Origin: Asterias amurensis
Taxonomy: Eukaryota > Echinodermata > Asteroidea > Forcipulatida > Asteriidae
Length of the DNA: 64,000 bases
Reading direction: 5' to 3'
Assembly (NCBI RefSeq): GCF_032118995.1
Contig: NC_092669.1
Coordinates: 12,882,335-12,946,334, forward strand
The notes below the pieces were generated by a model. It searched no databases. It was not told the origin of the DNA and was given only the letters and a program-made list of their open reading frames with translations. The position numbers and the translations under genes were made by a program. This document shows positions 53,901-59,900 of this stretch, in pieces. Numbering within the stretch: the stretch's first letter is position 1; every line of letters begins with the position of its first letter.

Positions 53901-56900
53901 TAATTCTGACAGTTTCTCAATTTGAGACTTTATTTTGGGGCAGTCACTCAAGCTGGGACAGCTACTTAAGTTGGGGCAATTACTCAGTTGGGACAGTGAC
54001 TTCAGTTGGGACAGTGACTTAAGATGGGACAGTCACTGTTGCTCAAGTTGGGACAGTTATTTAAGTTGGGACAATGACTTAAGATGGGACAGTCACTGTT
54101 GCTCAAGTTGGGACAGTTACTTAAGTTGGGACAGAGACTTAAGTTGGGACAGTCACTGTTGCTCAAGTTGGGACAGTTACTTAAGTTGGAACAGAGACTT
54201 AAGTTGGGACAGAGACTTAAGTTGGGACAGTAACTGTTGCTCAAGTTGGGACAGTTACTTAAGTTGGGACAGAGACTTATGTTGGGACAGAGACTTAAGT
54301 TGGGACAGTAACTGTTGCGTAAGTTGGGACAGTTACTTAAAGTTGCAACAATTACTTATTAAGTAATTGACCCATTGACCCAACTTAAAGTTGGGACAGT
54401 TACTTAAGTTGGGTCAGTTAGTTTGTAATGTAAGTGTTTATTACAAGTAGAGACTTTGCAACAAACATTCCATGTAAATCTATTCCAGGCGCCTCGTTGT
54501 GCAATGAGTACAGAAAACACAGTTTAAGAGTCAGTTCAGGTAAATAGTTGACATACTTGCTCACGGTCAAAAAATGAATTTTTTTTATACTTTGTGGGTG
54601 GAAGGGCCTTGGGGTGCAAGTAAACAAAATTGCATTTTCAATTCTATTTATAGCCCGTTGCCATGGTTACAGCTCATTTTGTTTTTTGGCCATTTTAGGC
54701 CGATTTTGGGGTCTGAAAAACTGTTTTTTAGCTCATATTTACAACTCCACTCAACCAAAATGCAACATTATTTCAAAAAACCTTTTATATCACTACAAAG
54801 TATCATCCTTGGCCTTCCTTGAGATAAAAAATTATTGCTTTAAATAACACCCTTGTGCTATTTTTGCATTATGCATTACAGTATGTTTTTAGAACTTGCA
54901 AAATCAACATTTTTACCCTATTTTTGGACCCCAAAATGTCAACTTGCCAGGGGTCTCAGAAAATTTCCCTTTCGGCTGTGATTAGGGCCAACAGTGGTCT
55001 TTCCATATCTGGTGTCAAAAACTTGGGCAATTGTATCCTGTTGTGACAGTACTGCCTCAAAACTGGACTTTTTTTTTAGACATGAAAAATGCCTTTTTAA
55101 GGGTCTTTTCACATAATATCGAAATGCGTGTCAACGGTAAAAAGAAAAGAATATTTTTCATTTTTTTGTGGATGGTAGGATGGTAGGGACTTGGGGTCCA
55201 AATAAACAACATTTACATTTCAAATCATAATATAACACGTTGCCATGGTAACAGTTCATGTGTGTTTAGGCCACTTTAGGCTGATCTTGGGGAATGAAAA
55301 ACTGTTTTTTTGGTTAATATTTACAACTCCACCCCACCAAAAAACAAAATTATTTCATGAAACCTTTTACATCACTACAAATTATCATCCTTGGCTTTAC
55401 TTGAGACAAAAAAATATTGCGATAAATTTCCCCCTTGTGCTATTTTTAGAACGTGCATTAGAGTATGTTTTTAGAACTTGCAAAATCAACATTTTTACCA
55501 TATTTTTTACCCTCAAAATTTCATTTTTTTCAGGGGTCTCAGAATATTTTCCTTTCGGTTTTGATCAGGGCCAAAATTTGTCTTTTTTATTTCTGTTAAG
55601 AAAAACTTGGCAAGTGTATCCTGATGTTAACAGTACTGTCTCAAAAATAGACTTTTTTCCTCAAACAGAAAAATGCATTTTGAATTGTTTCTTCTTCATA
55701 TTGAATTTCTAACATTAAAAAGTAATAATTCTATCAATCTTGCAGCTTTTCCCTTAGCACTAGTGGATTACCCAACATTGATCAGGAACTGTTGATGACC
55801 TTAATTTTACAATTTGCCCGGCCCAGCCCCAATCATATTTCTTGACATTGCATAAAACAATGTTTTGTGAATAGCGCCTCTTTTTGTGAAAGTGTTTGGT
55901 TGTTATTGGTGTTTTCATGTCTTCTGGGTAGAAACACTGTGTTTATTGTATCCTGTTGTGACTGATCATGCCTTAAGTATAGTAATTTTTCCAAAAACAA
56001 TGCATGCTCGTTAAAAATCTGGCACTGTTTCCATGCCCTTTGAGTAATGAATACAAAGTTTTTATTTAAACATAATGGTATCCAACCAAACCATAACCAA
56101 TGCTTTGCCACTGAGAGTTCTTGATTTGGCTACTTTACCTATTGTACAGGTATGATTCCCATTGCAAGTAGAGTGCGATGAGCATTCTTTACAAGTTGTC
56201 TTTAATACAGGGCCTACTCTCCTTGGTCCCTGCCTGCTACCAAATGTAAAACTTTTCTTAGAGATAGAGATCATAAACAATGTAGTTTCTGTGCTTGCGG
56301 CAGATGGTTTGGAGCATCCAATCATATCCAACACAAACGTGGGAAATTAAAAAGCCCGCTTAAAAGTGTTGGAAAAGTTTGCCAAGATCTTATTAAAAAC
56401 AATGATACTAACGATTTGCAAGATGAGCGTAAGAGATTATTTAAAAGGAACACGTTGCCTGGGATCGGTTAAGTTGGTCTTTGAAATGCGTTTGTAACGG
56501 TTTGTTTTAAAATGCATGGTTAGAAAGATGTTTTTGAGTGATACTTGTATGGATCATTATATTCTACTTTTAAAATATCTTTCTAATCATATGCATTTTT
56601 TAATAAACGTTTACAAACGCTTTTCAAATACCAACTCGACCGATCCAAGGCAACGTGTTCCTTTAATGAAACAACATTGAAAGAAGTTGTAAAAACTTGC
56701 ACCTGCTGAACATAAATAAGTAAGATGCATTTGCAGTGACAAAGGCTATTCAGGCTAGTTTGATTATTTTTTCCATTCACTATCTTACTAATTCATAATT
56801 ATTATATATGTCTCTGAGAACGATCAACAAAAAACATTGAATTGTTCATCACGTTAAATAAACCAACTCTTTTATTGTTTGCAACAGTACAATTGAAAGG

Positions 56901-59900
56901 AACCCCACCATAGATGGGGGAACTGCTTACAGAAGGCCAAAGCAGGTGAATGGCCATTTAGCCCTTTAGTCCCTGCACCGCCCGAGTTTGCTGAAATCCA
57001 ATTTCTCAAGAGTCTTGCAGTAAATTACTGGAATCATATATCAAATTTTAAAAGATAGCCATGGCTTAATGTGTATGCACAATTTTTTTACCCTTTCGGT
57101 AATATTTGTATAAAAGTTCTCATGGGAACAATAAATGCCTCTCGTTAAACGGCTACGGTAATTTTTATGGCGAATATTTTTGTGCACGGATAAAATGAAC
57201 ACAATAGCTTTTCAAGGCTTTTTTCTGGCTCAATGCTCATACTGATTAAATGCGAAGGCGTTAATTTTTGACAATATCATAAATAATGAACAGTTTCCTG
57301 TTTACAAATGAGCGTTTTATTTTTCGTAAGAGCTAAATTATTTCAGATTCATCATTAGCTTCGACAAGTCAACTGTGAAGGGAGAATTAATAACGATCTA
57401 TAACAACTAGATATATTAACAAATGCGTAGACCTACTAATGACTATCGAGTTTTCTTTTGATGTTCCTTTTTTTCTACAAACACAAGCTAGCGAGGTTTC
57501 CTCGTACCGCATACAGTGTATCGCTATAATGCGGCTGGGCGGTACGGCGGCTAAATGGTTAGATACTTTGGATACAGTACTTGCTCACTTTTAGAGCCTC
57601 TTTGTTCTGATTAGGATGATAATGTTTAGTTTGGTAGCGGGCGGGGGACCAAGAAGACTGTTATAAGGCCATGTAAAGACAAGAACAGTAAAGATTGCTC
57701 ATCGCACTACTTCTCTTCTTGCAATGTGAATCATACCTGTACAACTAGGTAAAGTAGTTATGACAAAACAAGAACTCAGTGGCTTAAAGAGCATGGAAAC
57801 AGTGCCATATTCTTTTAACAAGCATGCTCGTTTTTGTTTTTTATCAATTCAAACTAAGGGATAACTTCAAAATGCATTTTTACTGTTTTTGGAAAAATTA
57901 CCATTTTTGAGGCAGAAGTGTCACAACAGGATACAATAAACCAAAGTGTTTCTCCCCAGTAGACGTGCAAACCATAATGATAGCCCATCAAAACAAAAAG
58001 GGAAATATTCCGAGAACCAGTAAAACATTAAAGACAGTACAAACTTTCTTGATGTGCAAGGGGAATTAAAAAATGTGACTTTCAAAAAAGAGGCGCTGTT
58101 CACAAAACTGTTATTTTATTTTATGCAATGTCAAGAAATATGATTGGGCCAGGGCCGGGGTGGGGCAAATTATAAGATCCTGATCAATGTTTGGTAATGC
58201 ACTAAACCTACAAAGTGCTTATAAAAAGCTGCCAGATTGATGGAATTATAGCTAACTTCTTCATGTTATAAATTCAAAATGAAGCAAATATTTCAAAATG
58301 CATTTCTCTATGTTTTCGGGGAAAAGGGTCTATTTTTGAGACAGTTCTGTTACATCAAGATACAATTGCCCGAGTTTTTCTTACCAGAAATAAAAAGACA
58401 AATTTTGGCCCTGATCAAAACCGAAAGGAAAATATTCTGAGACCCCTGAAAAAATGGAATTTTGAGGGCAAAAAATATGGTAAAAATGTTGATTTTGCAA
58501 GTTCTAAAAACATACTGTAATGCACGTTCTTAAAATAGCACAAGGGTGAAATTTATAGCAATATTTTTTTGTCTCAAGTAAAGCCAAGGATGATACTTTG
58601 TAGTGATGTAAAAGGTTTTATGAAATAATTTTGTTTTTTGGTGGGGAGGAGTTGTAAATATTAACTTAAAAAAACAGTTTTTCATTCCCCCAATATCGGC
58701 CCAAAGTGGCCTAAACACAAATGAACTGTTACCATGGCAACGTGTTATATTATGATTTGAAATGTTAATGTTGTTTATTTGCACCCCAAGTCCCTACCAT
58801 CCACAAAGTATAGGAAATATATTCCTTTTCTTTTATCATGGACACGTATGTCGATACTATGTGAAAAGACCCTTAAAAAGGCATTTTTCATGTTGTTGGG
58901 AAAAAAGTCTAGTTTTGAGGCAGTACTGTCACAACAGGATACAATTGCCCAAGTTTTTGACACCAGATATGGAAAGACCACTGTTGGCCCTAATCACAGC
59001 CGAAAGGGAAATTTTCTGAGACACCTGGCAAGTTGACATTTTGGGGTCCAAAAATAGGGTAAAAATGTTGATTTTGCAAGTTCTAAAAACATACTGTAAT
59101 GCATAATGCAAAAATAGCACAAGGGTGTTATTTAAAGCAATAATTTTTTATCTCAAGGAAGGCCAAGGATGATACTTTGTAGTGATATAAAAGGTTTTTT
59201 GAAATAATGTTGCATTTTGGTTGGGTGGAGTTGTAAATATGAGCTAAAAACCAGTTTTTCAGACCCCAAAATCGGCCTAAAATGGCCAAAAAACAAAATG
59301 AGCTGTAACCATGGCAACGGGCTATATATAGAATTGAAAATGCAATTTTGTTTACTTGCACCCCAAGGCCCTTCCACCCACAAAGTATAAAAAAAATTCA
59401 TTTTTTGACCGTGAGCAACTCTTAAGGAATGTTGAGCTCAGGGTACGTTTAGACTTCATTGTTGATTGTGGTCCTACAACAATAACCGTCATATTTGCCA
59501 ACATTCCTGCTCATCAACCGTCATATTTGCCAACATTCCTGCTCATCAAGCGGAAACTGCTGAATGCGCTTATTTTTATGTTTTGGGATTCCCATAATGT
59601 ATACCTGGCTCAGTTACCAATAGTGTCCACTGTCTTTAAAAGGCATAAACCTACAATACTAAAATTCCCATCAAGCTCCAGCTGGTCACTATCAAAGGTT
59701 TAATCACCCCCACATGACGCGCTCTTCACCAATAGGAATAGCGAAACTGTCTTAGGTATTTATGAATTGTTATTAAAAGTAGTTTTAGGTCAAAGTACGA
59801 GTGGTAGGATTGTTAAATTCTGAATAGTTCCAAAGTTCCAATACCCTGGATTTCATTCTTTGTTCTCATTGTTACATCTATGAATATGAGGATCCGGAAT

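What the first reader, a model, noticed from the sequence alone, without database searches (positions are those of the whole stretch)
54557..59418. Giant fold-back element carrying four X-box palindromes inside a ciliary gene
The element's two ~1.7 kb arms each hold two near-ideal RFX X-box sequences (54657, 55239, 58728, 59305), placed symmetrically. The host gene, TTLL1, encodes a ciliary tubulin polyglutamylase, and RFX factors are the known regulators of ciliary genes. A repeat family that carries X-boxes could spread RFX sites, or could use ciliated or germ cells for its own expression. I know of no such family, but I could not search.
Basis: partly seen in the sequence, partly recalled or inferred. 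Interest (0 to 1): 0.78.

Follow-up and report, generated by a model that had tools for sequence, protein, structure and literature searches.

The report
Jumping-gene family carrying RFX-like sites
The large inverted repeat is one copy of a mobile DNA family, probably in a sea star, whose arms repeat a motif that looks like the binding site of the cilia regulator RFX and that has been kept in distant relatives; whether RFX really uses it is untested.

Summary
The window carries a 4.9 kb fold-back element with four X-box-like sites at the stated coordinates. Its true ends lie slightly further out, at TTAA targets (54524-54527, 59422-59425), with 5'-GA termini; no protein was recognised. That is the anatomy of a non-autonomous Kolobok-like transposon with Foldback-style arms, in a roughly 10.6 kb TTLL1 intron.

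It is multicopy: 608 end matches (reversed-pattern control 8) and 1081 matches to an X-box-free anchor (control 1). With the site masked, 43 of 44 outer and 54 of 58 inner units keep it. Two diverged families keep the 14-mer (86-100% identical) although flanks between families are 36-68% identical. On most of contig C1, 71 of 94 exact GTTGCCATGGYWAC sites lie in element context.

RFX binding is plausible but untested. A strong rival is a transposase site: the fold-back-like Galileo has THAP-transposase sites in the same kind of place. The ciliary-gene idea gets no support: 0 of 6 other TTL loci on C1-C3 lie within 100 kb of a listed, exact-match end. Real, unusual, mechanism open.

The parts
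54524..54527 (.). left TTAA target site
   Evidence: TTAA directly outside GAG at 36 of 42 distinct ends compared
59422..59425 (.). right TTAA target site
54528..59421 (.). whole fold-back element (Kolobok-like, non-autonomous)
   Evidence: ends fixed by comparison with other copies; no Pfam match in the two inner ORFs tested
54557..55139 (+). left arm, unit 1 (outer)
   Evidence: 81% identical to unit 2 of the same arm over about 480 bp; 99% complementary to right unit 1 over 518 bp
55140..55700 (+). left arm, unit 2 (inner)
58301..58810 (-). right arm, unit 2 (inner), approximate limits
   Evidence: blocks I3, I5, I7, I14
58814..59418 (-). right arm, unit 1 (outer)
   Evidence: blocks I1, I8
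54657..54670 (+). outer X-box-like site GTTGCCATGGTTAC, starting at base 130 of the element
   Evidence: intact in 43 of 44 units
55239..55252 (+). inner X-box GTTGCCATGGTAAC, starting at base 712 of the element
   Evidence: intact in 54 of 58 units
58728..58741 (-). inner X-box GTTGCCATGGTAAC, right arm
59305..59318 (-). outer X-box-like site GTTGCCATGGTTAC, right arm
49667..53581 (+). host gene: four TTL-domain exon matches (49667-49801, 50415-50531, 52490-52597, 53468-53581); called TTLL1 by recall of its C-terminal motif

Best explanation
The thing is a copy of a non-autonomous, TTAA-targeting DNA transposon of Kolobok-like type. Each arm is built of tandem units of roughly 510-590 bp, and each of the outer two units holds one X-box-like site. 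Shown: family status, ends, unit structure, and retention of the 14-mer between diverged families. Inferred: the 14-mer is held by selection on the transposon lineage, because only copies with it are moved efficiently. Inferred, and my first choice: the site is bound by the host's own RFX factors, in male germ cells or other cells where RFX is active. That would keep the element's ends in open chromatin, or would once have driven the lost transposase gene, so that transposition happens in cells passed to the next generation. A side effect would be to scatter RFX sites over the genome.
For: Ends and TTAA in window and copies. Copy number, with up to 3 mismatches: 608 ends vs 8 in the control, 1081 anchors vs 1; exact: 444 inner-site 17-mers vs 0. 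With the site masked, 43 of 44 outer and 54 of 58 inner units keep it exactly. X-box-free selection on C1 (exact-match anchors and ends): 37 of 48 anchors and 23 of 25 ends have it in place. X-box-free family A query: 21 of the 28 checkable matches, of 40 found, have the perfect palindrome in place. Between families, flanks 36-68% identical but 14-mer 86-100%; the best 14-column window of the six-unit alignment is the X-box, 12 invariant columns against at most 9 in windows not touching it. Family A carries the perfect palindrome GTTGCCATGGCAAC, and inner and family A sites fit all five published consensus strings with a 2-base spacer. The host has RFX DNA-binding domains, 13 matches.
Against: No binding, expression or chromatin data. 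The copies looked at encode no recognised protein, so need no promoter of their own. The outer site, kept in families W and B, fails four of five X-box consensus strings. Placement within long repeated arms copies that of transposase sites in Galileo (PMC3688188). Within family W the site is among the slowest-changing windows but not the slowest: counting its own window, 16 of 570 and 36 of 538 windows are as low or lower. Most loci were fetched by likeness to the outer 519 bp, site included. Family A was first met through a search with the X-box palindrome. 11 of 48 anchors, 2 of 25 ends and 7 of 28 family A matches lack the exact site.
Confidence: 0.45

Rival explanations
1. The 14-mer is an internal binding site of the family's own transposase (Kolobok transposases carry a THAP DNA-binding domain). 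Repeated sites in long arms give the transposase its specificity and synapsis. The likeness to the RFX site is convergence.
For: In Galileo a THAP site lies about 70 bp from the end and two more at 561-577 and 701-718 bp, inside tandem repeats of the long arms (PMC3688188 passages and section 2.6); here the sites start at bases 130 and 712. Kolobok transposases usually have THAP, DDE and H2CH parts (PMC6004289 passages). THAP domains are abundant in this genome: 150 matches from the 150 of 417 candidates scored. Four THAP matches lie 0.8-4.8 kb from an X-box-bearing or family A site (picked by eye; distances). Non-autonomous elements need transposase sites, not promoters. The outer variant is kept although off the usual X-box consensus.
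Against: A perfect 14-base X-box palindrome with a 2-base spacer in family A is a large coincidence. No transposase with these ends was found. 0 of 24 THAP matches on C1-C3 lie within 10 kb of a listed (exact-match) end. Of the four near cases only one could be read: its THAP gene lies outside the diverged end. A second copy of that THAP repeat shows no X-box in the 1.75 kb read, which covers only its upstream side and THAP exon.
Confidence: 0.38
2. The sites are inherited baggage: a once-captured host promoter or X-box region became part of the arms and is kept only by common descent, recent amplification and homogenisation of the arms.
For: The best 40 family W outer units are young (97-100% identical over 518 bp), so within-family intactness needs little selection.
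Against: Between families the flanks have drifted to 36-68% identity while the 14-mer stays at 86-100%. The family B sites differ from the palindrome by which the locus was found.
Confidence: 0.12
3. Chance palindromes in an ordinary repeat.
For: None beyond the small number of sites in one copy.
Against: Shuffle control 0.23 against 8; whole-genome reversed-pattern control 5 against 1544 strand matches.
Confidence: 0.01

Closest known systems
Kolobok superfamily of DNA transposons (non-autonomous members, e.g. Xenopus T2-MITE)
   Same: TTAA target, 5'-RR / YY-3' termini, terminal inverted repeats, non-coding members (PMC9587614 and PMC6004289 passages)
   Different: Here the arms are long and built of tandem units, each outer unit with an X-box-like site; no transposase was found
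Galileo (P superfamily) and other Foldback-type elements such as Tetris
   Same: Long arms with tandem repeats; in Galileo, internal protein-binding sites at similar distances from the ends; Tetris copies lack conserved ORFs (PMC3688188 and PMC4079207 passages)
   Different: Target is TTAA rather than the 8-10 bp duplications given for Tetris; no sequence relation tested
KolobokP
   Same: Kolobok-type termini; reported from a sea star, Patiria miniata
   Different: KolobokP is flanked by long direct repeats; here the long repeats are inverted
RFX X-box of ciliary promoters
   Same: Same kind of 14-base inverted repeat with 2-base spacer
   Different: Here inside a transposon, not in a promoter; outer variant off most consensus strings

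Membership tests
Kolobok superfamily | TTAA target duplication | tested here: met
   36 of 42 distinct family W ends read TTAA outside the tip, with unlike flanks beyond by eye. In L049 the family A right end and family B left end, and the L050 unit, read TTAA|GACTGGG; the A left end in L049 does not, and the B right end was not reached
Kolobok superfamily | 5'-RR ... YY-3' termini | tested here: met
   GA at family W ends and at the A and B ends that keep TTAA; definition from PMC9587614
Kolobok superfamily | DDE transposase with THAP and H2CH parts | tested here: inconclusive
   No Pfam match in two inner ORFs; no autonomous relative found; the one 10.3 kb copy looked at holds a different retroelement
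piggyBac superfamily | termini other than RR...YY | tested here: not met
   Termini are RR...YY, the feature by which PMC9587614 separates Kolobok from piggyBac
KolobokP | long terminal direct repeats | tested here: not met
   Long terminal repeats are inverted
Foldback-type element | long inverted arms with internal tandem repeats and a middle domain | tested here: met
RFX-regulated cis element (X-box) | fit to X-box consensus | tested here: met
   Inner and family A sites fit five of five strings; outer site fits one of five
RFX-regulated cis element (X-box) | bound by RFX in cells | not testable with these tools
   no binding or chromatin data at hand
RFX-regulated cis element (X-box) | enrichment near ciliary genes | tested here: inconclusive
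   0 of 6 other TTL loci on C1-C3 within 100 kb of an exact-match end; one gene family only, low power

The most novel reading that the evidence does not exclude
A clade of TTAA-targeting fold-back transposons has turned the host's ciliary/germ-line RFX site into a fixed, repeated part of its arms. It has been kept through family divergence until the flanks are barely alignable, so the clade uses RFX-active cells for its own spread and now supplies most of the host's perfect X-box-type sites.
Probability: 0.35. Interest if true: 0.82.

Novelty: new variant of a known kind. Interest (0 to 1): 0.62.

Why it matters
If RFX binds these sites, one transposon group provides about three quarters of the exact GTTGCCATGGYWAC sites on most of contig C1 (71 of 94). 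That would be a natural test bed for how transposons tap, and may rewire, the ciliary and sperm gene programme. If instead a transposase binds them, it would be a further case beside Galileo of repeated transposase sites explaining why fold-back arms are long. Both are testable by a simple binding experiment.

Tried and rejected
Autonomous partner: the 10.3 kb interval between two family ends on C1 (9.4 kb of it read) proved to hold an inserted retroelement with a reverse-transcriptase-like ORF and a further long ORF (DIRS-like by my reading, no search run), not a transposase. THAP genes beside X-box sites: four near cases, of which one was read; L055 has its THAP gene about 550 bp outside a diverged family end. 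A second copy of that THAP repeat (L056) shares only the THAP exon region and shows no X-box. No conclusion.

TATA-like letters just upstream of the site (TATATATAG in the family W majority) looked like a promoter, but the A units and B_1 lack them, so I dropped it. The pattern GTTGCCATGGTTACAG (80 strand matches) undercounts outer sites, because the majority string reads ...TTACGG; I do not use it as a count.

Limits of the counts. The lists show only places without mismatch, first in contig order, so rest on the best-kept copies. My script comment that the list is complete is wrong for copies with mismatches. The 71 of 94 is 55 sites near an X-box-free neighbour plus 16 with only another X-box within 5.5 kb. 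In one search, 12 of 40 family A matches could not be checked because the list ends at C10. In one search, 4 of 48 and 4 of 62 units did not cover the site and were dropped. The six-unit alignment used 6 of the 13 rows; left out were three near-copies (A_1R, A_2R, B_1R) and four L050 rows, two of them reads in the wrong orientation. In one search I placed the two window sites 2 and 1 bases off; one search located the site again by search. The script missed L028 because of a one-base insertion; I counted it by eye.

Literature: searches (RFX or X-box with transposable elements) and 26, 42, 48, 58, 64. Searches returned no paper; no title or abstract listed by the others describes an X-box-bearing transposon family (search 43 listed 12 of 500). 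The library holds only open-licence papers. Papers seen as passages: PMC9587614, PMC6004289, PMC2375033, PMC5838959, PMC4079207; PMC3688188 as abstract, passages and section 2.6. Others: search listing only.

Full report
What is there. The window is part of contig C22 of a 491.5 Mb genome in 23 contigs. Contig C23 is 16,427 bases and reads as mitochondrial under the echinoderm code, with ORFs that look like ND1 and ND2 on the strand opposite to COI (gene names by my reading). From recalled knowledge of mitochondrial gene orders that points to a sea star. The window holds one large inverted repeat with X-box-like sites at exactly the four stated places. A strict published consensus finds 8 strand matches in 64 kb, 6 of them here, against 0.23 by shuffling.

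True ends. The element is therefore 54528-59421, flanked by TTAA at 54524-54527 and 59422-59425. Its right arm lacks 26 bp near the tip. The first bases are GA and the last TC. TTAA plus RR...YY is how Kolobok is told from piggyBac in PMC9587614. No transposase was found, so membership rests on ends and target only.

Host gene. Four TTL-domain exon matches lie at 49667-53581. The last is followed by a GTAAGT donor. The next exon (RWNKIPPKECYGNYELL) begins near coordinate 64177, just outside the window. So the element lies in a roughly 10.6 kb intron. The name TTLL1 rests on recalled C-terminal motifs.

Family. An X-box-free 24-base anchor from the arm has 1081 matches with up to 3 mismatches (control 1). 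The 22-base end has 608 with up to 3 mismatches (control 8). The inner site with neighbours, 17 bases exact, has 444 (control 0). Outer units at the best 40 places are 97-100% identical to the query, so these copies are young. Each arm is a tandem of two clear units, 79-82% alike in most of the copies listed, followed by weaker repeats.

Conservation inside the family. With the site masked in the query, 43 of 44 outer units read GTTGCCATGGTTAC and 54 of 58 inner units read GTTGCCATGGTAAC. Divergence in the site is about a tenth of the unit mean. Counting the site's own window, 16 of 570 and 36 of 538 windows are as low or lower. Most of these loci were fetched by likeness to the outer 519 bp, site included. 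On C1, 37 of 48 exact-match anchors and 23 of 25 exact-match ends have the exact site in place. Since copies decay after insertion, this alone does not show selection.

Conservation between families. L049 holds two related fold-back elements, A and B, with TTAA|GACTGGG at the A right end and B left end; the A left end lacks the TTAA and the B right end was not reached. Family A units carry the perfect palindrome. Family B has one unit type nearer to A and one nearer to W. Between families the flanks are 36-68% identical and the 14-mer 86-100%. The X-box is the best-conserved 14-column window, 12 invariant columns against at most 9 in windows not touching it. Family A was met through its palindrome, so I searched again with an X-box-free piece: 21 of the 28 checkable matches, out of 40, have the exact palindrome at the expected offset. 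Retention across such divergence is the main evidence that the site matters to the transposon.

Share of the genome's sites. GTTGCCATGGYWAC has 1544 strand matches, 1426 places after counting the 118 palindromes once, against 5 for the reversed pattern. On C1 up to 36.24 Mb, 71 of 94 places lie in element context: 55 near an X-box-free neighbour and 16 with only another X-box within 5.5 kb. The other 23 are solitary and may be host X-boxes or decayed units.

What it probably does. Two readings are close. The site may be used by host RFX. The inner and family A sites fit all five published consensus strings, the outer site fits one of five, and the host has RFX DNA-binding domains. Or it may be used by the family's transposase. 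Kolobok transposases usually carry THAP domains (PMC6004289 passages), and in the fold-back-like Galileo THAP sites lie near the end and again inside the arm repeats (PMC3688188), much like bases 130 and 712 here. Four THAP matches lie 0.8-4.8 kb from sites of this group, but the one that could be read lies outside the element end, and 0 of 24 on C1-C3 lie within 10 kb of a listed exact-match end. I lean to RFX because a perfect 14-base RFX palindrome is hard to get by convergence, but only slightly. The lack of a recognised protein and the off-consensus outer site pull the other way.

Ciliary genes. The six other TTL loci on C1-C3 are 123 kb to 2.8 Mb from the nearest exact-match element end. 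Insertion in TTLL1 therefore looks incidental so far. A full test needs gene annotation that I did not have.

Verdict. A real and unusual feature: a new variant of a known kind of transposon, with a testable and undecided mechanism.

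Noticed in passing
L049:1869-7811: Two related fold-back elements whose arms are interleaved (A left, B left, A right, B right) instead of nested, as if an inversion or template switch had joined them.
   Followed up: partly
L051/L052 (C1:8088901-8098300): A family member split by an inserted retroelement with a 781 aa reverse-transcriptase-like ORF and further long ORFs.
   Followed up: no
G000:C10:18142368-19245147: Nine exact GTTGCCATGGTTACAG sites within 1.1 Mb, eight of them within 0.55 Mb; may be a repeated gene or another repeat family.
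   Followed up: no
L050:345-9386: Direct repeats of about 1.16 kb next to family A units, part of a cluster of A units on C7 around 7.66-7.71 Mb.
   Followed up: no
window 56444-56664: A small hairpin (74-base arms, 86% complementary, 73 bases between) inside the loop of the fold-back element.
   Followed up: no
window 53935-54420: Tandem array of an 18-base unit TTGGGACAGTTACTTAAG with 60 and 78-base higher-order periods, ending about 100 bases left of the element.
   Followed up: no
window 25674-27122: Strongly strand-skewed minisatellite, about 48 copies of a 30-base unit.
   Followed up: no
L055:1794-2231 (minus strand), L056:1376-1750, and other places: A repeated THAP-domain gene, many of the 150 scored matches with nearly the same score, probably a transposon protein.
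   Followed up: partly
G000:C1, 23 solitary sites: Solitary GTTGCCATGGYWAC sites outside element context, mostly GTTGCCATGGTAAC; candidates for true host X-boxes.
   Followed up: no
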